A stretch of 64,000 nucleotides of DNA from Bacteroidaceae bacterium (GTDB lineage: Bacteria > Bacteroidota > Bacteroidia > Bacteroidales > Bacteroidaceae), in contig JAGCPY010000029.1 of the NCBI GenBank assembly GCA_017965425.1, positions 62,001-126,000 on the forward strand. Direction: 5' to 3'. Each line of letters opens with the position of its first letter. Position 1 is the stretch's first letter. The notes beneath the pieces are model-generated. The model saw only the letters and a list, made by a program, of their open reading frames with translations. It did not search any database and was not told the DNA's origin. Below are positions 29,623-56,957 of the stretch, piece after piece. The translations under genes and the position numbers were made by a program.

Positions 29623-29662
29623 GGAACGTGTAAACCTTCTGCATGTAAGGTGTACACGTTCC
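29623..29662. repeat. 22-bp-period palindrome array A (2 units)
   Basis: Two 8-mers GTGTAAAC (29628-29635) and GTGTACAC (29650-29657) are exactly 22 bp apart. The flanking bases make a 16-bp inverted repeat (GGAACGTGTAAACCTT against AAGGTGTACACGTTCC, one mismatch, 8-base loop), so this shortest array could also act as a hairpin downstream of the SusA-like gene. Confidence 0.75.
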
Positions 29663-29720: not shown

Positions 29721-29946
29721 ATCCCTCAATCCCTCACCTTTTGAGATATTGTATTGTCGTTCAGTGTTTTATAGGTGAGGGATTGGTGAGGGATAGGTGA
29801 GGGATGGTGAGGGATTCGTTTTTTCAGCGTTTTTGGGGCTTTCTGCGAGCTATTCCTCACCATCCCTCACCTATTCCTCACCTATCCCTCACCTGTAGTA
29901 GGCTCTCTTTCAGTTGGTTATCGCGTAAGGTGAGGGATTGAGGGAT
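29721..29946. repeat. Large inverted-repeat element of GGTGAGGGAT units, copy 1
   Basis: The outer arms are a perfect 20-bp inverted repeat: 29721-29740 against 29927-29946. The inner arms are about 43 bp each: 29773-29815, four tandem units of 10-11 bp with consensus GGTGAGGGATA, against 29852-29894, with a few mismatches and a 36-base loop. It lies between the convergent SusA-like and ispF genes and has no coding potential. Together with array A it accounts for most of the 535-base gap at 29546-30080; nothing else was recognised there. Confidence 0.85.
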
Positions 29947-36436: not shown

Positions 36437-36562
36437 GGAACGTGAATACGTTTCTGGCAGAAGGTATATACGTTCTGGGCAGAAGGTATAGACGTTCCAG
36501 GCAACTCGTATATACGTTGCGGGCTTCTCGTATATACGTGTCCGCCGATGCGTATATACGTG
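36437..36562. repeat. 22-bp-period palindrome array B (6 units)
   Basis: Six 8-mers start at 36442, 36464, 36486, 36508, 36530 and 36552, each exactly 22 bp from the next: GTGAATAC, GTATATAC, GTATAGAC, GTATATAC, GTATATAC, GTATATAC. Between them run spacers such as GTTCTGGGCAGAAG. It lies in the 424-base divergent gap between the FAH gene and the Gfo-type oxidoreductase, upstream of the FAH promoter. The rest of that gap holds no other feature I can support. Confidence 0.88.
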
Positions 36563-36730
36563 TCGTGAACCCTCGAAAAACGTGCCAAATGCGCCTCGGA
36601 CACGTCTGGAAGGGCGCGTAAATGTGAAATAGATTAAAAAACACACGTGAAATGATTCACTTTTTCAAATTCTGCCGTAACTTTATGGCGTGAAACCGAA
36701 CAATCTTTAAAAAAAGAGCCTTTTATAGCC

Positions 36731-40572: not shown

Positions 40573-40648
40573 ATCACGTATTTGCGCTGTACCTCCATTG
40601 TGTACACTACGGTCGTCAAGCCGATTGAGCTTGAGCGTCAATCCTAAA

Positions 40649-43620: not shown

Positions 43621-43780
43621 TCTTTGTTGTTAATAATTATTGTTCTACTAAAGTTCGTTGCTGGACTCTCACCAGCCCGTTTTTGTACATCTGCGATTCA
43701 CTAACCACCTTTTCAGGCCAATGAAAAAGGCTATTAACACGCAGATAGTTAGCCCTTTATAGGCTTCTTTGATAATAATC
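43621..43780 (-). promoter_or_regulatory. Structured leader of rplM, probably an L13-Bacteroidia-type ribosomal-protein leader
   Basis: The transcript from the promoter at 43787-43794 has an untranslated leader of about 160 bases. Visible pairings: GCTGG/CCAGC hairpin (43660-43676), ATCTGCG at 43689-43695 with CGCAGAT at 43740-43746, and inside it CCTTTT with AAAAGG around 43708-43730. A leader class for L13 is known in Bacteroidia; I assign it from position and structure, not from a covariance model match. Confidence 0.5.
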
Positions 43781-45871: not shown

Positions 45872-46588
45872 ATGTTGAAGAATCATTGTTTTAGAGGTTT
45901 AGGCGTGGCGGTAAGCTTCGTTGCTTGCCTTGCTGTCCTGTGTACAGTATCATGCAGCAAGGACGAGACCTACGCCGAGCAGAAAGAGAAGGAACGCAAC
46001 GCCATCAAGGGCTTTATTAGTCAGGGCATCAATGTCGTCAGCGATGGCGACACCATCCTCCGCGTCTTGCCCATTACCGTTATCAGCGAAGAACAGTTTC
46101 ATGCACAGGACAGCACGACCGACCTTAGTCGCAACGAATATGTCCTCTTCAACGGTACTGGCGTTTATATGCAGATTGTCCGAAAGGGCGTCGGCCCTAA
46201 GTTGGAATCCGGTCAATCCAAGCAGGTCATAGCCCGCTATACCGAGTTCAACATCATGCTCGATTCCATCCAGTCGAGTAATGAAGTGCTCTATTTCTCT
46301 GCAACCCCCGACATCATCAACATCTCCAATTCCTACGGGACTTTTACGGCTTCGTTCAACACGACGGATTACCGTCCTGGAGCGATGTATAGTTTCTATA
46401 AGTCAACGGAAGTACCTGCCGGGTGGCTGGTGCCTTTCACCTATATCCATATCGGACGTCAGGGGAAGCAGGACGACGAAATCGCCAAGGTGCGCTTGAT
46501 AGTGCCTCATACCCAAGGGACTTCCAGCGCCCGAGAGAGTGTCTATCCTTGTTTCTACGAGCTTACTTTCCAGCAGACCAGAGAGTGA
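45872..46588 (+). CDS. DUF4827 lipoprotein (FKBP-like)
   Basis: A 238-residue lipoprotein with signal VACLAVLCTVSC and lipidated Cys at about residue 28, followed by SKDETYAEQKEKERNAIKGF. The rest, including VYMQIVRKGVGPKLESGQ and PAGWLVPFTYIHIG, matches the Bacteroidetes DUF4827 family, which resembles FKBP peptidyl-prolyl isomerases. Isomerase activity is not established. It begins one base after the CapD-like gene and is co-transcribed with it. Confidence 0.8.
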   Translation: MLKNHCFRGLGVAVSFVACLAVLCTVSCSKDETYAEQKEKERNAIKGFISQGINVVSDGDTILRVLPITVISEEQFHAQDSTTDLSRNEYVLFNGTGVYMQIVRKGVGPKLESGQSKQVIARYTEFNIMLDSIQSSNEVLYFSATPDIINISNSYGTFTASFNTTDYRPGAMYSFYKSTEVPAGWLVPFTYIHIGRQGKQDDEIAKVRLIVPHTQGTSSARESVYPCFYELTFQQTRE

Positions 46589-46662
46589 ACACGTTCTGTC
46601 TGGAACGTATATACCTTCCATGCCGAAGGTGTACACTTGATGCATGGAAGGTATATACCTTA
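46583..46662. repeat. 22-bp-period palindrome array C (4 units)
   Basis: 8-mers start at 46585 (GTGAACAC), 46607 (GTATATAC), 46629 (GTGTACAC) and 46651 (GTATATAC), each exactly 22 bp apart. The first unit overlaps the stop codon of the DUF4827 gene, and the last ends about 35 bases before the peptidase ATG. It fills almost the whole intergenic space. Confidence 0.85.
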
Positions 46663-46693: not shown

Positions 46694-48901
46694 ATGAATA
46701 CACGGATTCTTTCTGGCTTTATCGTGCTGGCCGTTATGTTTACCGCTCTACCCGCGAGGGCGGAAAAATTGTCATTGGACGAGATTTCCCGTGGCGCATT
46801 TGCCGCCAAGGGAGTTCATGGCGTGCGCCCGCTCATGGATGGCGAACGTTATGCACAAATGGACGGCAAGCAGATAACCGCTCACTCCTTCCGTACGGGT
46901 GAACAGACCGACGTGCTTTTCGATGTGGCCTCCACGAAAGGCGACCATCGCATCGAGCGTTTTACGGACTACATCCTCAGCCCCGATGAGAAGACCATTC
47001 TCATCCAGACCGAACGCCAACCCATCTATCGCCATTCCGCCACTGCCGTCTATTATATTTATAATGTACGTAACCGCACGCTGGAGCCCTTGTCTGACGG
47101 CGGCCCGCAGGAGGTACCGGCCTTCTCAAAGGATGGTACGATGGTGGCCTTTGTGCGGGACAATAACCTGTTTCTCGTCAAGTTGCTGTTTGGTAACTCG
47201 GAACTGCAAGTGACGAAGGACGGGGCTTTCAACAAGGTCATCAATGGCAAGCCCGATTGGGTGAACGAGGAAGAGTTCAGTTTTGCCCGTGCCTTCGATT
47301 TCAATGCCGACGGGTCTATGTTGGCATGGATTCGTTATGACGAGACAGCCGTGCCGCAGTTCTCTTTCCCGCTTTACAAAGGAGGCTTCCCGTCGCGTGA
47401 CGAGTTCGCCGAATACCCTGGGCAGTACACCTATAAATATCCAATAGCAGGCGCGCAGAACAGCACGGTCAGCGTCCACAGCTACGACATCAAGAGCCAT
47501 CGCATCCAGCAGATGAAGCTGCCGTTGGATGCCGATGGCTACGTGCCCCGCATCCAGTTTACCAGCGACCCGGAGAAACTGCTCATCCTGACGCAGAACC
47601 GCCATCAGGATCGCCTCGACATCTATGCCGCCAACCCACGTTCGACAGAGTGCAAGCTCATTGTCCGCGACCAGGTCGAGAAATACATTACCGAGGAACC
47701 CTACAAGAATCTGCATCTTTTCGACGGCGGCTTTGTACTGATGAGCGAACGCTCGGGCTTCAACCACCTCTATCTCTATGACCTCAACGGCACTTTGAAA
47801 AGGCCACTCACGTCCGGCCAGTTTGTCGTCACCAGTTTCTACGGATACGATTCCAAGACCGGCGAGACCTATTTCGCCAGTGACGAGCAGGGACCTCAGT
47901 ACCGTGCCGTCTATCGTGCCGATGCCAAGGGCAAGGTGACAAGCCTCAGTCAACAACGTGGCACCAACAATGCCGTTTTCTCCAAAAACTTCAAGTATTT
48001 CATGAACACCTATAGCAGTGTGACCACGCCGCCTGTCACGACACTTTGCGACGCAAAGAGTGGCAAGCCGCTGAAGACACTTGAAGCTAACGAGGGCTTG
48101 AAAACGAAGGTCGAAGCGGCGCAACTGCCTGTGCCCGAATTCTTCTCGTTCAAGACGGGGGAGGGCGTTCAACTGAACGGCTACATGGTGAAACCTACGG
48201 ATTTCTCCGAGTCGAAGCGCTATCCTGTTGTCATGTATCAGTACAGCGGTCCTGGTTCACAGCAGGTGCTTGACCAATGGAACGTCGGCAATATGGGAGG
48301 CTGCATGTTGGAGCGCTACCTGGCTCAGCAAGGCTTCATCTGCGTTTGTGTGGATGGCCGGGGTACAGGAGGCCGCGGCGCAGCTTTCGAGAAACAGACC
48401 TACTTGAGCCTCGGCGTGTTGGAAGCCAAGGATCAGGTTGAAACCGCTCTCTACTTGGGCTCACTTCCTTATGTGGACAAGCAACATATCGGCATCTGGG
48501 GGTGGAGCTATGGCGGCTTCATGACCTTGATGTCCATGACCGAAGGCCGTGGCGTTTTTGCTGCCGGCGTGGCCGTTGCTCCCGTGACGAATTACCGTTT
48601 CTATGACAGTGTTTACACCGAACGCTACATGCGTACACCCAAGGAGAACGCCAAGGGCTATGACGAGAATCCGATGTCGCGTGCCGCTCAGCTCCACGGT
48701 GCCTTGCTGCTCTGTCATGGCACTGCCGACGACAACGTCCACTACCGCAATACAGCAGAGCTGACCGAAGCCCTTGTGCAGGCAGACAAGCCTTTCATGC
48801 AACTCATCTATCCAAACCGCAACCACAGCATCTACGGCGGCAACACCCGCCTCCACCTCTATCGCAGCCTCGTCCGTTGGTTCGAGGAACATCTGAAGTA
48901 A
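46694..48901 (+). CDS. S9 family dipeptidyl peptidase IV-like serine peptidase
   Basis: A 735-residue exported peptidase with signal peptide ending LPARA. Residues 40-480 form the DPP-IV-type beta propeller (DYILSPDEKTILIQTE, FSFARAFDFNADGSMLAWIR). The alpha/beta hydrolase domain carries S605 in GWSYGGFM, D679 in HGTADDNVHYRN and H711 in NRNHSIYGG; the spacing resembles that of human DPP-IV. It removes X-Pro or X-Ala dipeptides and probably acts in the periplasm. RYDETAVPQFSFPLY is typical of the Bacteroidetes DPP-IV group. The gene follows array C. Confidence 0.94.
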   Translation: MNTRILSGFIVLAVMFTALPARAEKLSLDEISRGAFAAKGVHGVRPLMDGERYAQMDGKQITAHSFRTGEQTDVLFDVASTKGDHRIERFTDYILSPDEKTILIQTERQPIYRHSATAVYYIYNVRNRTLEPLSDGGPQEVPAFSKDGTMVAFVRDNNLFLVKLLFGNSELQVTKDGAFNKVINGKPDWVNEEEFSFARAFDFNADGSMLAWIRYDETAVPQFSFPLYKGGFPSRDEFAEYPGQYTYKYPIAGAQNSTVSVHSYDIKSHRIQQMKLPLDADGYVPRIQFTSDPEKLLILTQNRHQDRLDIYAANPRSTECKLIVRDQVEKYITEEPYKNLHLFDGGFVLMSERSGFNHLYLYDLNGTLKRPLTSGQFVVTSFYGYDSKTGETYFASDEQGPQYRAVYRADAKGKVTSLSQQRGTNNAVFSKNFKYFMNTYSSVTTPPVTTLCDAKSGKPLKTLEANEGLKTKVEAAQLPVPEFFSFKTGEGVQLNGYMVKPTDFSESKRYPVVMYQYSGPGSQQVLDQWNVGNMGGCMLERYLAQQGFICVCVDGRGTGGRGAAFEKQTYLSLGVLEAKDQVETALYLGSLPYVDKQHIGIWGWSYGGFMTLMSMTEGRGVFAAGVAVAPVTNYRFYDSVYTERYMRTPKENAKGYDENPMSRAAQLHGALLLCHGTADDNVHYRNTAELTEALVQADKPFMQLIYPNRNHSIYGGNTRLHLYRSLVRWFEEHLK

Positions 48902-48988: not shown

Positions 48989-49333
48989 AAAAAAGCCTCA
49001 ATCCCTCACCTTTTCATTTAGCCGCCTGACTTTGAACAGCTTGCGGGTGAGGGATAGGTGAGGAATAGGTGAGGGATGGTGAGGAATTTGTGATGAACAG
49101 GGCTTCATCGGAATTTTTCTTGATAAGTTTCATTGTTCTTGTAGCTGTAATTGTTTGTAAATCAGCTCTCTCGACGGCACCCTCAAGTCCGTCTGGTTTT
49201 TCACATTCCCCTCACTGGGTGTTGTTCTGAACACCAATCCCTCACCATCCCTCACCTATTCCTCACCTATCCCTCACCCGCAAGTTGTTTATAGTCAGGC
49301 GGCTAAATGAAAAGGTGAGGGATTGAGGCTTTT
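48989..49333. repeat. Large inverted-repeat element of GGTGAGGGAT units, copy 2 (97-bp arms)
   Basis: The arms 48989-49086 and 49236-49333 are complementary over about 97 bp with only about five mismatches, separated by about 150 bases. From the outside in, each arm has GCCTCAATCCCTCACCTTTT, then GCCGCCTGAC with a variable stretch, then four GGTGAGGRATA-type units. It sits between the convergent peptidase and Omp28-like genes. The loop region 49087-49235 shows no gene. Together with array D it fills most of the 660-base gap at 48902-49561. Confidence 0.9.
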
Positions 49334-49380
49334 TCTGCGTAAAAGCTTGGTAAGGGGTGGATGAGAGCGCGCAACGGAAG

Positions 49381-49455
49381 ATGAATACCTTCGAGGGTAA
49401 GGTGAATACCTTCGTGCAGGAACGTGTTTACCTTCTTGCATGAACGTATTAACCT
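49381..49455. repeat. 22-bp-period palindrome array D (4 units)
   Basis: 8-mers start at 49381 (ATGAATAC), 49402 (GTGAATAC), 49424 (GTGTTTAC) and 49446 (GTATTAAC), spaced 21, 22 and 22 bp. It lies directly beside the large inverted repeat, just as arrays A and F lie beside copies 1 and 3. Confidence 0.8.
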
Positions 49456-49561
49456 TTCAATGCCTTTTGCTTCAGGACGTATGCCGATAGGCCATAGGTC
49501 AAATAAAAGCGGCATAGTCCTTCTGGACCACGCCGCCACAGTTGACAGGGGAAAGCAGTTC

Positions 49562-52500
49562 CTATTTCACGATGACCTTGTAGATGTTGCCGTCTCGCGT
49601 GCGGACGAGGTTGATGCCGCGCATAGGTCGTAGGATGCGTTTGCCGTCGATGGAATAGCGAGCGGCCTCCTGCCCGGCAGCTTCGGTAATGTCATCTACG
49701 GCATCAGGTTCAGCGGTGATGACCTTCTTCTCATCAGCATTGATGAAACGCTTCAGTGTCTTGTCGTAGAGAAGGGCAATGACACGCAGCTCAGTCGCCA
49801 TCTTTGCGAGTTTGTTGCTCTTGATGGTGAACTTGGAACTGTGACTCTGTGTCTGTCCTTCTTCCACAGTGGTCTTGAGGCTTCCGGTGACGCCCGTATT
49901 GATGCCGTTGGCGGCGACGGCCACGTCGTTAAAGGTTACGTCGGCACTGATTTCCCAAATATTGCAGATCTCGTTCATGTAAGGATCGTCTTGATAAGCG
50001 CCTGGATAGTAGGCCGGGTATGCGTTGAGCTGTTTCCAGTCTTCGCCTTCACCGTGAAGTCCGTCGGCCACGAGGACATAGCTCAGCAGATAGGGAGCTG
50101 ACTTGCGGTTGAGTTGGAAGGTGACGTCGGTCGTGAAATTGATGACGCCAGTGGCTTCGTTCAAGGTCGGTTGGTGAAGCTCGATGGAGGCTTCGGCCAG
50201 TTTGCTCTGCTCATCTTCGATGACCGCACCAAGCCCCCATCCTTCAGACCCTTCACCCAGATATGGATCGACCGTGCGGTATCGGTTCACGTTGGCAGAG
50301 GGATAGCCGCTAACGCTATTAAGGAGAGAGCTGAAGGCGCTGACCAGCATGGGCTCGTTGTCGCGACCGCCGTGGATGGAGATCAGCACAGCGTCGTCGG
50401 GATATTCGGCACGTGCACGTTTCATGCCTGCCAAACCGCGCGGACACCACATGCACCAGGTGCCCGTGAACTCTTCAATCACGGTCTTGCGGGGTGATGC
50501 CTTGGCAACCACGGTGATGCTTCCGGAGGAGGACTTGCCGGTGGTGGCCTCGTTCGTCTGACCGTTCACGGCTGTGATGGCGATGATGTAGTTGGCAAAG
50601 CCCGTTTCTGTTGGCGTGGGAATGGGGAAATCTACGGGCATGTAGATGCCATAATTGGTGATGGGACGGGGCAGGTCAAGGTGCAACGTGTCGCTGGTTA
50701 GTCCGTTGGTCTTTATCGTGTAGTCGAGGCTCTTGATGCCTTCACGGCCGAAGTTGGCCACGGGAACAGACACCTTTGCCGTTGAATTCTTGAGGACGGT
50801 CGCCGGTGCGAAGTCATTGAGCTGTGCTTTGTTGGCGATGAAGTCCTCAGCGATGGTCACGGGATGGATGTCGGCATTGACGATCTCGCCGGTGGCTTTG
50901 TTGAAGAGAACGGCAACGACACTCAGCTGGTCGAAGTTCTGCAAGACGGGATTGCCCGAGAGCGGGAAGGAGGTAGAGAATGTGCGTGTATCTCCGTCAA
51001 CGATGGGCGCTTTGAGGACGGTGCCGTCTGCATTCATGCCTTTACTGGCGATTGCCACGTGGTCGTAGGTCATCGGCATGTAGGCGTTGCCTTCTGTCCA
51101 GCGGAGCAGGTTGGGGTCATTGCCATAGTCGTCCTTGTTTTCCTCTCGGCAGTAGTAGTTGGCTTGCATCCATTCGCGACCTGTGCCGATCAGCCCGTCA
51201 GCCAGCAGAGCATAGCCCATGCAGTAGTGAGACTCGTTGTTGTTGTAGTTGAACGTGACTTGGGTCTTGAACGTCACATTACCGGCTTTGGATAGCACGG
51301 GCTGTTGTAGCTCCACAGACGCTTCTGTCAACATCTTGTTTTTCTCGCCGACGAGGGATAAGATGCCAGCCGGTTGGCCTGAAAGACCAAAATAAGGATG
51401 TACGGCGGTGCTGCGGTCCAACAGCGCGTAAGGGTAGGAGGGGGCCGTGACGCCATAGTCGATGGTCATGGGGTCGTCGCCATGAACGATGATTGTGATG
51501 GCCTTGTCGGGGTACTGCTCGTTGACCATCTGCATTCCGGTGATGCCCGTCGGACACCATCCGCACCAGGTTCCCGTGAATTCCTCAATGACGGTTCGTC
51601 TGGGCACTTCTTTGGAAAGGGTGGCCACGTAACCTTGTGAGCTGGCATCCTCAACGGCATTTTCTACGCCGTTGACCTTCGTGACGGTCAGGTAGCGGAT
51701 GGTGCGCCCGGGTACTTCATCCGCTTTCATGGGGATGTGCACGGTGGTTTCTGCGTCCATGCCTTCGAAAGGCTCAAATTCCAGATGCTGTTCGTCTTGG
51801 TCGGCATTGGCATCGCCTACGATGTAGTCAATGCTTTGGACTTTTCCCAGTCCCTTGGAGGTGAGGGTGACAGCCGCCTCAGCAAAGCCGTTGGGCAGGG
51901 CAAAGGCATCGTGGAAGGAGCTGGCGACTTGCACGGCGTTGTGCGGGAAATCGCCGTCGAGCAGCACTTGTATGGCCAGGGGACCGTATTCTTGAGAATC
52001 ATTGTTCCATGCGCTCTGCGTTTTCGAGGTGCGCACCCATAGAGAGTTGTAGATGTTTGCGCCGTTGTAGCGAAGCAGCATTGGATAGTTCGACTCAGCG
52101 TTCGATTCCGTAATCTCGAAAGTGTAGCCCACATAAACGGTTTGGTCGGTCATGGCGTAGGCGGTGGGCAGTTCCACCTCGGTGAACGCCTGATTGTTGA
52201 TGCTTCCCATGTCAACAGGAATGTCCAGTTCAACGTCGTCGAGACTGTTTGGCAGTTTGTTTGCAATCCAGACGTGGAAGTCCTTCATCACGCTGGCTCC
52301 GGCAATGCCGAAACGCACGGCTTTGATGGTTTTTCCTTTGGGCAAAGCCTCGGAAGGGGCAATGCCAATGGCTCCCCAGTAAACTTCTGCCGCACTGGCG
52401 CCGAAGCCGATAGCATTAGATACGTCGTTGCCAGTAAAATAGCCCCACCACATTTGGCGTTCCTTGTCCACTTCAATGGCGGCACGGCGTGGAACGAAAT

Positions 52501-52648
52501 GGGGCAACGACTCGAAACGCATGAGCGAAGTGCGTTGTGATGCTGGGATTTCGGGCAATAAGCGTGGACCGTTCTTCCGAAGGCCCTGTGTGTTGGCGGC
52601 TCCTGCGATGAACAAGAGGATGAACAGGAAATGTAATCGTTTAGACAT
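49562..52648 (-). CDS. Omp28-related protein with two thioredoxin-like domains and a T9SS-like C-terminus
   Basis: A 1028-residue secreted protein with a signal peptide ending GAANTQ. It contains a duplicated module: VIEEFTGTWCGWCPTGITGM (about residue 355) and VIEEFTGTWCMWCPRGLAGM (about residue 725), each opening a thioredoxin/Omp28-like fold with a CxxC pair, each followed by a beta domain beginning SVELQQPVLSKAGNVTFKTQ or SIELHQPTLNEATG. The end, YSIDGKRILRPMRGINLVRT, resembles a T9SS C-terminal sorting domain. It may be a surface thiol-disulfide protein. A single-gene unit with its own promoter. Confidence 0.82.
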   Translation of the reverse strand: MSKRLHFLFILLFIAGAANTQGLRKNGPRLLPEIPASQRTSLMRFESLPHFVPRRAAIEVDKERQMWWGYFTGNDVSNAIGFGASAAEVYWGAIGIAPSEALPKGKTIKAVRFGIAGASVMKDFHVWIANKLPNSLDDVELDIPVDMGSINNQAFTEVELPTAYAMTDQTVYVGYTFEITESNAESNYPMLLRYNGANIYNSLWVRTSKTQSAWNNDSQEYGPLAIQVLLDGDFPHNAVQVASSFHDAFALPNGFAEAAVTLTSKGLGKVQSIDYIVGDANADQDEQHLEFEPFEGMDAETTVHIPMKADEVPGRTIRYLTVTKVNGVENAVEDASSQGYVATLSKEVPRRTVIEEFTGTWCGWCPTGITGMQMVNEQYPDKAITIIVHGDDPMTIDYGVTAPSYPYALLDRSTAVHPYFGLSGQPAGILSLVGEKNKMLTEASVELQQPVLSKAGNVTFKTQVTFNYNNNESHYCMGYALLADGLIGTGREWMQANYYCREENKDDYGNDPNLLRWTEGNAYMPMTYDHVAIASKGMNADGTVLKAPIVDGDTRTFSTSFPLSGNPVLQNFDQLSVVAVLFNKATGEIVNADIHPVTIAEDFIANKAQLNDFAPATVLKNSTAKVSVPVANFGREGIKSLDYTIKTNGLTSDTLHLDLPRPITNYGIYMPVDFPIPTPTETGFANYIIAITAVNGQTNEATTGKSSSGSITVVAKASPRKTVIEEFTGTWCMWCPRGLAGMKRARAEYPDDAVLISIHGGRDNEPMLVSAFSSLLNSVSGYPSANVNRYRTVDPYLGEGSEGWGLGAVIEDEQSKLAEASIELHQPTLNEATGVINFTTDVTFQLNRKSAPYLLSYVLVADGLHGEGEDWKQLNAYPAYYPGAYQDDPYMNEICNIWEISADVTFNDVAVAANGINTGVTGSLKTTVEEGQTQSHSSKFTIKSNKLAKMATELRVIALLYDKTLKRFINADEKKVITAEPDAVDDITEAAGQEAARYSIDGKRILRPMRGINLVRTRDGNIYKVIVK

Positions 52649-53983: not shown

Positions 53984-54066
53984 GCAACGTAAATCCCTTC
54001 TGCCAGGAACGTGTACACCTTCTCTTAGGAACGCGTACACCTTCTGTCTGGAACGCGTACACCCGC
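53984..54066. repeat. 22-bp-period palindrome array E (4 units)
   Basis: 8-mers start at 53989 (GTAAATCC, degenerate), 54011 (GTGTACAC), 54033 (GCGTACAC) and 54055 (GCGTACAC), each exactly 22 bp apart. Spacers read CTTCTGTCTGGAAC or similar. It lies in the divergent gap between hemW and the EF-G2 gene. Confidence 0.85.
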
Positions 54067-54344: not shown

Positions 54345-56501
54345 ATGAAAAACTATCAGACAAAAGAGATCAAGAACATTGCCTTGCTTGGTAGTGACGG
54401 GGCTGGTAAGACCACCCTCACCGAAGCGCTGCTCTTCGAGAGCGGCATCATCAACCGTCGCGGACGCATCACCCAGAAGAACACCGTCTCGGATTATCTG
54501 CCTGTGGAGCAGGAATACGGTTATTCGGTCTTTGCCACCCCTTTCCATGTGGAATGGAATGAAAAGAAACTGAACATCATCGACTGCCCGGGCTCGGACG
54601 ACTTCGCCGGAGCTGCCATCACGGCTATGGGCGTGACGGACACCTCCGTCATCCTCATCAACGCACAGAACGGCCTCGAAGTGGCTACGCAGAACCACTT
54701 CCGCCTGACAGAGAAGATGCAGAAGCCTGTCATCTTCTTGATTAACCGCTTGGATGACGAGTGCGACTTCGACCATCTTCTTGAGCAACTGAAGAGCGTC
54801 TATGGTTCCAAAGTGGTGCCCGTGCAGTATCCCATCAAGACTGGTGCAGACTTCAACGCCGTCATCGACGTGCTGCTGATGAAGAAATACAGCTGGAAGC
54901 CCGAAGGAGGTGCTCCCATCATCGAGGATATTCCTGCCGATCAGCTCGACAAGGCCACCGAGATGCATCACGCTCTTGTTGAGGCGGCTGCAGAACACGA
55001 CGAAGGACTCATGGAGAAGTTCTTCGAGACAGAAGAGCTCACAGAGGACGAGATGCGTGACGGCATCCGCGCTGGTCTGGCCAGCCGCGGCATGTTCCCC
55101 GTCTTCTGCGTTTGCGCTGGCAAGGACATGGGCGTTCGTCGCCTCATGGAGTTCTTGGGCAACGTCGTGCCTTTCGTAGATCAAATGCCTGCCGTGAAGA
55201 ATACACGCGGCGAAGAGGTCAAGTGCGACCCCGCAGGTCCCACAAGCCTTTACTTCTTCAAGACCGCCGTTGAGCCCCATATCGGTGAAGTGCAGTACTT
55301 CAAGGTGATGAGCGGAACCGTGCATGAGGGTGACGACCTGACGAATGCCGACCGCGGCTCGAAGGAGCGCATTGCTCAGCTTTTTGTCTGTGCGGGTGCC
55401 AATCGTACGAAAGTCACTGAGCTCGCAGCCGGTGACATAGGATGCACCGTGAAGCTGAAGGATGTCAAGACCGGCAATACCCTCAATGGTAAGGACTGCG
55501 ACAACCAGTTCGCATTCATCAAGTATCCAGAGCCCAAGTACATACGTGCCATCCGTGCCGCCAATGAGGCAGACACCGAGAAGATGATGAATATCTTGGC
55601 CCGCATGTCACAGGAAGATCCCACTTGGGTCGTCGAGCAATCCAAGGAATTGCGTCAGATTCTCGTGAAGAGCCAGGGTGAATTCCACCTCCGCACCCTC
55701 AAGTGGCGTATGGAGAACAACGACAAGATGAACATTATCTTCGATGAACCCCGTATTCCTTACCGCGAGACCATCACGAAGGCTGCCCGTGCCGACTATC
55801 GTCATAAGAAACAGTCCGGTGGTGCCGGTCAGTTTGGCGAGGTACACCTCATCGTGGAACCATACGTCGAGGGCGAACCTCTCAAGGAGGTCTATCGCTT
55901 TGGCAATCAGGAATACCGCATCACAGCCAAGAGCGAGGATGTTACCGAACTGGAATGGGGCGGCAAACTCGTCTTCATCAACTCCGTCGTCGGCGGTGCC
56001 ATCGATGCACGCTTCATGCCTGCCATCCTTAAAGGCATCATGTCCAAGATGGAACAGGGACCGCTCACTGGTTCCTACGCCCGCGACGTGCGTGTGATTG
56101 TCTATGACGGTAAGATGCACCCCGTTGACTCCAATGAACTTTCCTTCATGCTGGCCGGACGCAATGCCTTCGTGCAGGCTTTCCGTGAGGCTGCTCCCAA
56201 ACTGCTCGAACCCATCTATGATGTGGAAATCTTCGTGCCCTCCGACAAGATGGGCGATGTGATGTCCGACATTCAGGGCCGTCGCGGCATGATCATGGGC
56301 ATGACCTCCGAGAGCGGTTACGAGAAGCTCACCGCCAAAGTGCCCTTGAAGGAAATGTCTTCTTACTCTACCGCTCTCAGCAGCATCACCGGTGGACGTG
56401 CCAGCTTCGTCATGAAGTTCTCCAGCTACGAACTCGTGCCTGCTGACGTGCAGCAGAAACTTCAGAAGGAGTTCGAAGAGAGCCAGAAGGATCAGGACTA
56501 A
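54345..56501 (+). CDS. fusA2: EF-G paralogue of the EF-G2 type, lacking the catalytic GTPase histidine
   Basis: A 718-residue EF-G-like protein with all five domains. The P-loop is GSDGAGKTTL (residues 16-25). The switch II segment reads IIDCPGSDDF: the usual DTPGH is changed so that S84 stands where the catalytic His should be. The switch I motif RGI is replaced by EYGYSV, and the G4 motif NKxD is NRLD. These changes match the known Bacteroides EF-G2, reported to translocate without GTP hydrolysis and to be needed for gut colonisation. It is a single-gene unit with a structured leader and a terminator. Confidence 0.92.
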   Translation: MKNYQTKEIKNIALLGSDGAGKTTLTEALLFESGIINRRGRITQKNTVSDYLPVEQEYGYSVFATPFHVEWNEKKLNIIDCPGSDDFAGAAITAMGVTDTSVILINAQNGLEVATQNHFRLTEKMQKPVIFLINRLDDECDFDHLLEQLKSVYGSKVVPVQYPIKTGADFNAVIDVLLMKKYSWKPEGGAPIIEDIPADQLDKATEMHHALVEAAAEHDEGLMEKFFETEELTEDEMRDGIRAGLASRGMFPVFCVCAGKDMGVRRLMEFLGNVVPFVDQMPAVKNTRGEEVKCDPAGPTSLYFFKTAVEPHIGEVQYFKVMSGTVHEGDDLTNADRGSKERIAQLFVCAGANRTKVTELAAGDIGCTVKLKDVKTGNTLNGKDCDNQFAFIKYPEPKYIRAIRAANEADTEKMMNILARMSQEDPTWVVEQSKELRQILVKSQGEFHLRTLKWRMENNDKMNIIFDEPRIPYRETITKAARADYRHKKQSGGAGQFGEVHLIVEPYVEGEPLKEVYRFGNQEYRITAKSEDVTELEWGGKLVFINSVVGGAIDARFMPAILKGIMSKMEQGPLTGSYARDVRVIVYDGKMHPVDSNELSFMLAGRNAFVQAFREAAPKLLEPIYDVEIFVPSDKMGDVMSDIQGRRGMIMGMTSESGYEKLTAKVPLKEMSSYSTALSSITGGRASFVMKFSSYELVPADVQQKLQKEFEESQKDQD

Positions 56502-56584: not shown

Positions 56585-56598
56585 ATCCAACTCATGTC

Positions 56599-56700
56599 AG
56601 GTATTGACATCCTTCAAAAAAGGTGTTGACGTTCCTTGTAGAAGATGTTGACCCTCCACGAAGAAGGTGTACGCCTTCCACGGGAAAGGTGTAAACATTG
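56599..56700. repeat. 22-bp-period palindrome array F (5 units)
   Basis: 8-mers start at 56601 (GTATTGAC), 56623 (GTGTTGAC), 56645 (ATGTTGAC), 56667 (GTGTACGC) and 56689 (GTGTAAAC), each exactly 22 bp apart. The units are more degenerate than in array B, but the spacing is perfect. It lies between fusA2 and gdhA, which converge. Confidence 0.82.
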
Positions 56701-56848
56701 CAACTACAAGATATATCGTTCGACTTTTGCAAATATGTTGACACCAGTATATCGCGTCCCTTTGAGCCGAGCGCAGGGCGATAAGACAGCTTGCGGAAGT
56801 TGAGTAAATCGTCTCCGTTTTTATAGAGGATGGCCAAGAAAAAACAAT

Positions 56849-56957
56849 ATTCCTCACCATCCCTCACCTATCTCTCACCAATCCCTCACCTGTAACCTGT
56901 TGCCTGATAGGGAATTGGGTTAAAAGGTGAGGGATTGAGAGATTTCTTGGCAAAATG
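56849..56957. repeat. Half of a GGTGAGGGAT inverted-repeat element, copy 3
   Basis: Only one arm is present: ATTCCTCACCATCCCTCACC and two further units, a 33-base spacer, then AAAAGGTGAGGGATTGAG and the end GATTTCTTGGCAAAA. The outer end matches the left end of copy 1 (29711-29742) in inverse orientation, including GGCAAAA and a following GTATAGAAG. The other arm is missing. It lies between the convergent fusA2 and gdhA genes; the remainder of the 479-base gap is terminator and array F. Confidence 0.75.

What the first reader, a model, noticed from the sequence alone, without database searches (positions are those of the whole stretch)
36437..36562. Arrays of GTRTAYAC-type palindromes with an almost invariant 22-bp period at six intergenic sites
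At 29628, 36442, 46585, 49381, 53989 and 56601 there are runs of 2, 6, 4, 4, 4 and 5 units. Each unit is centred on an 8-mer close to GTRTAYAC, itself palindromic, and the starts are exactly 22 bp apart in all but one interval (21 bp in the array at 49381). In the array given here the six starts are 36442, 36464, 36486, 36508, 36530 and 36552. Period and centre are conserved while the spacer sequence varies, which suggests selection on helical phase: 22 bp is about two turns, so every site faces the same side. A phased binding array for a dimeric DNA-binding protein, or a nucleoid or chromosome-organising site, is a possible explanation. The arrays also create spurious N-terminal extensions of annotated genes (FAH, hemW).
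Basis: partly seen in the sequence, partly recalled or inferred. Interest (0 to 1): 0.8.

Follow-up and report, generated by a model that had tools for sequence, protein, structure and literature searches.

The report
Phased palindrome arrays of HU-related proteins
Gut and rumen Bacteroides-type bacteria carry short DNA arrays in which a palindrome recurs every 22 bases (two turns of the helix), scattered between genes and often sitting just in front of genes for a little-studied family of HU-like DNA-binding proteins, which suggests that these proteins read array codes of their own.

Summary
All six arrays are present; core pairs at exactly 22 bp number 14 against 0.01 expected. In the parts of the window's genome (G000) that I read, I scored 83 such arrays with 303 units. 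Linkers are nearly random while cores are conserved, so core and spacing look selected.

Intergenic arrays of exactly 22 bp recur in about half of the stretches sampled in the family and in Parabacteroides. Unit sequences differ between species and array types; many look like an 18-bp palindrome plus a 4-bp linker.

They lead to a protein family. HU-HIG genes (PF18291, HU-related) have a 22-bp array upstream in 23 of 58 cases, against 34 of 479 control genes (P 3e-10). Six of six further HU-HIG genes from two named species have a 21- or 22-bp array, as does one found unsought. Paralogues mostly carry unlike units. Of 26 scattered arrays, 9 match a HU-HIG promoter array of the same genome, 0 one of another genome.

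Best reading: cooperative HU-HIG binding platforms, autoregulatory at promoters and scattered elsewhere. No binding has been measured.

The parts
36438..36563 (.). Six-unit array, period 22 bp, units GTGAATAC GTATATAC GTATAGAC GTATATAC GTATATAC GTATATAC, in a divergent intergenic gap
   Evidence: R1 match G000:C21:98439-98496
29624..29661 (.). Two-unit array (GTGTAAAC, GTGTACAC), convergent gap
46581..46662 (.). Four-unit array, alternating GTG- and GTA-type cores, overlapping the stop of the BamK-family gene 45872-46588
49377..49457 (.). Four-unit array with one 21-bp interval, convergent gap between genes 46694-48901 and 49562-52648 (weak, below-cut-off matches to Dpp5 and Omp28); the orthologous gap of G003 (L224 about 1460-1570) also has a 22-bp array with a different unit
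53985..54066 (.). Four-unit array upstream of the elongation factor G2 gene (54345-56501), divergent gap
56597..56700 (.). Five-unit array, convergent gap between EF-G2 and glutamate dehydrogenase genes
40578..40607 (.). Candidate two-unit array (GTATTTGC, GTGTACAC), weak

Best explanation
The arrays are binding platforms for HU-HIG proteins: HU-superfamily DNA-binding proteins, several paralogues per genome, some with a C-terminal extension. A unit is typically an 18-bp palindrome followed by a 4-bp linker. The 22-bp period puts successive dimers two turns apart on one face of the helix, so they can fill the array cooperatively. At its own promoter (array mostly 50-300 bp before the estimated start) this lets a paralogue control its own level. 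The same unit type, scattered between genes, marks further sites, where bound protein would shape local DNA or influence transcription at gene borders. In the window's genome the only one of 7 HU-HIG genes with this array type upstream is L279 (G000:C37:24233-24604, minus strand). SHOWN: arrays, period, palindromic covariation, intergenic position, association with HU-HIG promoters, unlike units at different paralogues, same-genome twins. INFERRED: physical binding, dimer per unit, cooperativity, autoregulation, role of the scattered copies, and the pairing of L279 with the window arrays.
For: (1) In the 450 bp upstream of HU-HIG genes the best significant three-unit period is 22 in 23 of 58 (also 21 in 4, 20 in 2). 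Controls: 34 of 479 other genes with an upstream gap of 100 bp or more (Fisher odds ratio 8.6, P 3e-10); 1 of 38 HU-HIG downstream regions; 0 of 5 canonical HU genes. (2) Survey without sequence assumption around 40 PF18291 matches (6 of them canonical HU): 19 arrays at period 22 in 129.6 kb against 6.35 expected, P 4e-5; P 0.002 at the highest background rate. (3) 11 of 11 relatives of L442 read from named records have a 22-bp (8) or 21-bp (3) array upstream, 0 of 11 downstream; 5 of the 11 repeat genes of G143 (same species), so 6 of 6 are new, and all six pass the PF18291 cut-off. (4) An HU-HIG gene (115 bits) that happened to lie in a control stretch has a 22-bp array 97 bp upstream. (5) In G000 five paralogues have five unlike promoter arrays (by eye); only L279 has the window's type. 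In G062 the M type precedes L441 and E-like units precede L454 and (by eye) L435; in G143 scattered types match L442 and L418. (6) 9 of 26 scattered arrays have a same-genome HU-HIG promoter twin, 0 of 26 an other-genome twin; label permutation P 2e-4. (7) Spacing kept although linkers are near random. (8) Palindromic partner columns covary.
Against: No binding has been measured. 26 of 58 HU-HIG upstream regions show no significant array of any period and 35 of 58 none at 22. The similarity of L279's array to the window array is only moderate (0.64, just under the 0.65 cut-off), and a Phocaeicola array scored the same against L279. I saw no HU-HIG partner for the GTGTACAC half of G000's units, nor for G131's arrays in the regions read. 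17 of 26 scattered arrays have no HU-HIG twin (15 if L440 and L441 are included); not all HU-HIG upstream regions were read. Same-genome similarity could partly reflect that the arrays of a genome belong to a few families. Paralogue specificity is not strict: L435 and L454 both carry E-like units. Test (1) includes L440 and L441, fetched because an array was already seen there; without both it is 22 of 56. Control genes come from other genomes of the family and from a simple ORF caller; no other regulator family was tested as a control. Two canonical HU genes of G000 also have an array of the window's type within 1.2 kb (L282 downstream, L283 about 1.1 kb upstream).
Confidence: 0.72

Rival explanations
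1. Minisatellite or MITE-like dispersed repeats that spread by copying and have no binding function; the period is a by-product of how they arise.
For: Several genomes have families copied as whole elements: G062 has matches to the three-unit M block at 40 places, G143 has elements with a recurring unit order and shared flanks. BrickBuilt of Porphyromonas gingivalis is a published intergenic 23-nt minisatellite MITE (PMC4596501; abstract and passages seen).
Against: In G000 adjacent units share cores (0.80) but hardly linkers (0.37 against 0.30 between arrays), yet spacing is 22 in 173 of 178 pairs (loci found with 22-bp-spaced queries); neutral decay would bring indels. A neutral repeat does not predict enrichment upstream of one gene family nor palindromic covariation.
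Confidence: 0.12
2. Sites of another dimeric regulator or nucleoid protein (for example ribbon-helix-helix or winged-helix); HU-HIG promoters are merely one class of its targets.
For: A viral contig has an array of about ten units beside an ORF that I judged by eye to be ribbon-helix-helix (L271); some HU-HIG proteins have a C-terminal extension that looks like a winged helix to me. No HU-HIG match was found for part of the array types.
Against: HU-HIG paralogues of one genome mostly carry unlike array types, which a single other regulator would not explain.
Confidence: 0.12
3. REP/BIME elements spread by REP-associated tyrosine transposases.
For: Short palindromes, intergenic, many copies, often next to stop codons in convergent gaps.
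Against: Y1_Tnp domains are absent from 5 of 10 genomes searched, including G062 with matches at 40 places, and number 1-3 in the others. The strict 22-bp register is not a REP feature (recalled).
Confidence: 0.02
4. RNA-level hairpins (terminators, mRNA stabilisers).
For: Arrays often follow stop codons; 28 of 78 classified arrays lie in convergent gaps.
Against: 14 of 78 lie in divergent gaps. Core covariation tolerates A-G and C-T combinations (54) more than G-T and A-C ones (35), unlike RNA pairing. At one conserved spot the array precedes a separate terminator-like hairpin (by eye).
Confidence: 0.02

Closest known systems
HU-HIG / HU_rel proteins (PF18291, TIGR01201)
   Same: The proteins beside the arrays are members by profile: L279 scores 68 bits against the PF18291 cut-off of 26.2
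   Different: My searches of the held library showed no paper on DNA targets of this family; L279 is below the TIGR01201 cut-off (44 against 68.6 bits)
Phased operator and iteron arrays (plasmid initiators with iterons near 22 bp; tandem phage operators) - recalled
   Same: Tandem sites about two helical turns apart, next to the gene of the binding protein
   Different: Chromosomal, dozens per genome, unit sequence differs between paralogues and species
Dispersed nucleoid-protein sites (matS/MatP, SBS/SlmA, NBS/Noc) - recalled
   Same: Tens of palindromic sites scattered over the chromosome
   Different: Single sites, not arrays; arrays in G143 show neither ter confinement nor ter exclusion (low power)
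BrickBuilt MITE of Porphyromonas gingivalis (PMC4596501, abstract and passages)
   Same: Intergenic tandem repeats in the same order, 19 copies in one strain
   Different: 23-nt unit, leader and tail with terminal inverted repeats; no protein partner in what I saw
REP/BIME (recalled)
   Same: Intergenic palindromes in many copies
   Different: No strict period; transposase link absent here

Membership tests
Cognate array of an HU-HIG protein | 22-bp (or 21-bp) array in the promoter region of the HU-HIG gene, above the rate for other genes | tested here: met
   23 of 58 against 34 of 479 at 22 bp; 6 of 6 new genes at 21 or 22 bp
Cognate array of an HU-HIG protein | The window's array type upstream of an HU-HIG gene of the same genome | tested here: inconclusive
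   Only L279 of 7 HU-HIG genes has it upstream; profile similarity 0.64, just under the 0.65 cut-off
Cognate array of an HU-HIG protein | Physical binding of the protein to the array | not testable with these tools
   needs footprinting or ChIP
HU-HIG (PF18291), protein L279 | Profile score above curated cut-off | tested here: met
   68 bits against 26.2
HU_rel (TIGR01201), protein L279 | Profile score above curated cut-off | tested here: not met
   44 bits against 68.6; 5 of 10 HU-HIG proteins tested are above
REP/BIME with RAYT | Y1 transposase in genomes rich in the elements | tested here: not met
   0 in G062, G125, G061, G012, G019; 1-3 in the other five of 10 genomes
MITE (BrickBuilt type) | Terminal inverted repeats and target duplications | tested here: inconclusive
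   Some G143 arrays start near ATTATTACG and end near CGTAATAAT (by eye); G000 arrays show no outer in-register units; target duplications not tested
Known structured RNA (Rfam) | Match above gathering score at the arrays | tested here: not met
   Only an L13 leader elsewhere in the window
Ter-excluded (SlmA/Noc) or ter-confined (MatP) sites | Uneven position relative to the terminus | tested here: not met
   15 array places on G143 contig C1 lie on both sides of the skew switch near 1.3-1.4 Mb, from about 0.05 to 1.75 Mb away; skew sampled in 20 stretches and noisy; low power
Plasmid iterons | Array next to a replication initiator gene | tested here: inconclusive
   Suggested by eye for viral contig L273 (its 513-aa ORF has no Pfam match); none among the ten window genes named; other chromosomal neighbours not tested

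The most novel reading that the evidence does not exclude
Bacteroidales run a chromatin-like addressing system: several fast-evolving HU-HIG paralogues each read their own palindrome, written as 22-bp-phased arrays at their own promoters and at dozens of chromosomal sites. Protein and arrays change together so quickly that sister species use different codes, with composite elements in which inner and outer units belong to different paralogues (the M and E units of G062).
Probability: 0.35. Interest if true: 0.95.

Novelty: new variant of a known kind. Interest (0 to 1): 0.85.

Why it matters
HU-HIG proteins come in several copies per genome here, and my searches of the held library showed no DNA target for them. 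If the arrays are their sites, one rule (a palindrome every 21-22 bp) gives candidate targets for many paralogues across these gut and rumen bacteria. It would turn an open question, what the expanded HU relatives do, into ordinary footprinting and ChIP experiments in species with named records such as Phocaeicola massiliensis and Bacteroides finegoldii. It would also give a bacterial case of fast co-evolution between architectural proteins and tandem DNA arrays, recalling satellite DNA and its binding proteins in eukaryotes. In practice, the arrays can also mislead gene-start calls.

Tried and rejected
RNA families: only an L13 leader in the window. REP/RAYT: rejected on Y1 transposase counts. 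Macrodomain or nucleoid-occlusion sites: 15 array places on a 3.1-Mb contig show no exclusion from or confinement to the terminus. Outer in-register units, seen in G062 and G131, were looked for in G000 and not found. Unlike arrays at one spot 2.35 kb behind EF-G2: 8 of 50 gaps tested have best period 22 (38 none; 8, 9, 24 and 42 one each), mostly within one clade, so I read it as descent with turnover, not repeated origin. Palindromy of period-22 consensus units is only partial: 19 of 71 at P 0.05 or less; period-21 arrays do as well (5 of 18), arrays of period 18, 24 and 33 do not (3 of 72). Viral contigs: the window type in three copies is in 4 contigs; three other types gave 0, 0 and 1. 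Orthologous positions between G000 and G003: 4 of 24 G003 array loci adjoin a gene that is orthologous by eye to one beside a G000 array, and one of these is the same gap. PDB sequence search for L279 and L418: no hit at E 0.01. Gene contexts used a simple ORF caller, so the classes (36 tandem, 28 convergent, 14 divergent of 78 classified among 83) are approximate.

Literature: I saw listings only and noticed no paper on 22-bp arrays of this kind or on DNA targets of HU-HIG; some searches found more papers than they listed. From PMC4596501 I saw the abstract and 12 passages. That HU-HIG is expanded in Bacteroidetes at large (a 2017 paper) is recalled; its DOI was not held.

Full report
Observation. 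All six arrays are present at the stated positions. In the 64-kb window, GTRTAYAC with up to one mismatch gives 14 pairs at exactly 22 bp, 7 at 44 and 4 at 66, against a mean of 0.01 (largest 1) at 22 bp in 100 dinucleotide shuffles. The single 8-mer is only modestly enriched (58 against 42); the spacing is the signal. Flanking genes over their NCBIfam cut-offs include EF-G2, glutamate dehydrogenase, BamK and IspF.

The genome. A DNA search of the window's own genome (G000, 3.73 Mb in 96 contigs) with the six-unit array gave 64 matches, and a sequence model built from 22 three-unit stretches gave 173 matches at E up to 1 over both strands. In the loci read I scored 83 arrays with 303 units; gaps are 217 times 22 and 3 times 21. 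That scan favoured 22. Repeated without a period assumption, neighbouring strong sites 12-60 bp apart in the same loci are at 22 bp in 173 of 178 cases, at 44 in 3, at 21 in 1 and at 14 in 1. The loci themselves were found with 22-bp-spaced queries, so this number is partly selected. In the window, which no such query chose, the distances between strong sites are also almost only 22 and its multiples.

Unit anatomy. The dominant cores are GTGTACAC (81), GTATATAC (51) and GTCTATAC/GTATAGAC (25) of 303. The partner columns of the core covary: G-C 116, A-T 65, A-G or C-T 54, G-T or A-C 35. Palindromic matching peaks at the unit centre (5.7 of 9 pairs) and 11 bp away (4.3-4.5), against 1.6-3.1 at other offsets. 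Adjacent units share cores (identity 0.80) and arms (0.68) but hardly linkers (0.37, against 0.30 between arrays and 0.25 by composition), n = 220 pairs. Linkers near saturation with spacing unchanged argue for selection on core and spacing. Of 78 classified arrays (of 83), 36 lie in tandem, 28 in convergent and 14 in divergent gaps; no array was called inside a gene.

Beyond the species. The model finds matches at E 0.001 in 7 of 61 genomes (G000 and six others of its genus) and in 10 of 201 genomes of the family. The genomes hit mostly have their own unit sequence; the period in these hits is not independent, since the model contains it. A survey that assumes no sequence (three units, best period) in 80 loci fetched with EF-G2 gave 18 arrays at period 22 in 393 kb of the same genus (13 of 25 loci) and 53 in 1,066 kb of other genera (28 of 55 loci), with 0 and 0 at 20, 1 and 2 at 23, 0 and 2 at 19. 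The rates elsewhere: 8 in 120 kb (six genomes of the same genus) and 9 in 261 kb (nine genomes of other genera of the family, five with arrays); 9 in 400 kb of G143 (8 after runs of N were excluded); 6 in 150 kb of Bacteroides finegoldii and Parabacteroides distasonis; 1 in 273 kb of other families of the order; 0 in 100 kb of E. coli and 2 in 1,459 kb of shuffled sequence. Parabacteroides belongs to another family, so the feature is not limited to one family.

Elements. Some genomes show composite elements in one 22-bp register. In G062 matches to a three-unit block (M: ATACATACATGTATGTAT plus a 4-bp linker) lie at 40 places (40 of 46 first-look candidates were scored). The 12 read have three M-like units each, by eye mostly with degenerate E units on both sides; in L246 a gene adjoins one side. 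In G131, 12 of 16 elements have four inner AAAAGGTGTACACCTTTT units by strict pattern, one has 3 and three have 2 (these show four by eye); outer units around CACGAGCGCTC lie on both sides in inverted orientation. In G143 a recurring order of unlike units and shared flanks are seen. The L133 array, by contrast, is nearly unique in its genome: two further weak matches of 20-22 bases. So arrays are dispersed by copying in some lineages.

The lead to HU-HIG. One viral contig has an array just before an ORF that weakly matches HU-HIG (20.8 bits, below the cut-off of 26.2). I therefore searched PF18291. G000 has 10 matches and eight further genomes have 81; these include canonical HU. Around 40 matches (129.6 kb, six of them canonical HU) the survey finds 19 arrays at period 22 against 6.35 expected at 4.9 per 100 kb (P 4e-5; P 0.002 at 6.7 per 100 kb), while 20 has 2 and 23 none. 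Two of the 19 lie beside canonical HU genes (L282, L283), which match PF00216 better.

The test. Of 58 HU-HIG genes read (7 of the 10 in G000, 51 of the 81; five canonical HU genes were set apart as a control, L282 was left out, and the rest were not read), the best significant period in the 450 bp upstream is 22 in 23, 21 in 4, 20 in 2, other in 3, none in 26. Controls: 34 of 479 genes of the EF-G2 loci with an upstream gap of at least 100 bp (odds ratio 8.6, P 3e-10), 1 of 38 HU-HIG downstream regions, 0 of 5 canonical HU genes. Two of the 58 (L440, L441) were fetched knowing of an array; without them 22 of 56.

Further genes. A tblastn with L442 in the plasmid collection found 12 records. 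I read 11: all have a 21- or 22-bp array upstream and none downstream. Five are from Phocaeicola massiliensis, whose L462 is 99.4% identical to L442 of G143, so they repeat genes already counted. The other six, five of B. finegoldii and one of P. distasonis, are new: five at 22 and one at 21, with unlike units; all six pass the PF18291 cut-off (67.5 to 141.4 bits). An HU-HIG gene of 203 aa (115.3 bits) that happened to lie in a control stretch of B. finegoldii has a 22-bp array (log10 P -9.9) 97 bp upstream.

Codes. In G000 the five HU-HIG promoter arrays at period 22 (L275, L277, L278, L279, L281) are of five types by eye, and only L279 carries the window's type upstream. Of 26 scattered arrays taken without regard to HU-HIG in seven genomes, 9 have a twin (profile similarity 0.65 or more) upstream of a HU-HIG of the same genome and 0 upstream of one of another genome (label permutation P 2e-4; 11 and 0 if L440 and L441 are included); the best pairs are in G143, G063 and G068, and G062 when L441 is included. 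The window array at 36505 against L279 scores 0.64, just under the cut-off, so this pairing is likely but not proven.

Mechanism. I infer that a HU-HIG dimer binds each palindrome, that dimers two turns apart on one face assemble cooperatively, that the promoter array gives autoregulation, and that scattered arrays bring the same protein to gene borders, where it could bend DNA, act as a boundary or affect transcription. Only the genomic associations are shown. HU-HIG proteins come in at least two forms here: short ones such as L279 and longer ones with a C-terminal extension that looks like a winged helix (my reading). The latter could supply sequence specificity.

Novelty. Phased operators, iterons and dispersed nucleoid-protein sites are known kinds (recalled). 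New here, as far as my searches of the held library show, are the 21-22-bp rule across several genera of Bacteroidales, the link to HU-HIG proteins, and a code that changes with paralogue and species.

Noticed in passing
window 29771-29946, 49001-49335, 56840-56940: Second repeat: 11-bp GGTGAGGGATA units and their inverted copies (TATCCCTCACC), next to three of the six 22-bp arrays; 11 bp is half the 22-bp period.
   Followed up: no
window 43695-43766: L13-Bacteroidia ribosomal leader (RF03127), 62.7 bits, minus strand.
   Followed up: no
L273 (viral contig, 12,957 bp, array at both ends): Small phage-like element with ParA, a DnaB-like helicase domain, packaging-type ORFs (by eye) and a 22-bp array next to a 513-aa ORF without Pfam match that may be a replication initiator.
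   Followed up: partly
L271, about 2714-2930: Array of about ten TTTGTATATACAAA units at 21-22 bp directly before an ORF that looks ribbon-helix-helix to me, in a 60% GC viral contig.
   Followed up: partly
G143 arrays, e.g. L330, L334, L343: Several arrays are followed by another repeat built of AAGACCTTGATGTTTTT-like stretches.
   Followed up: no
L084-L163: Period-7 tandem arrays are also frequent (21 and 26 in the two groups of loci).
   Followed up: no
L280, L424, L444, L446, L464, L470, L472: Some HU-HIG promoters have arrays of period 21 instead of 22, so the spacing may be a property of the paralogue.
   Followed up: partly
G000:C21:58693-59031: A Y1 transposase-domain gene lies about 3 kb before the window; no link to the arrays seen.
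   Followed up: no
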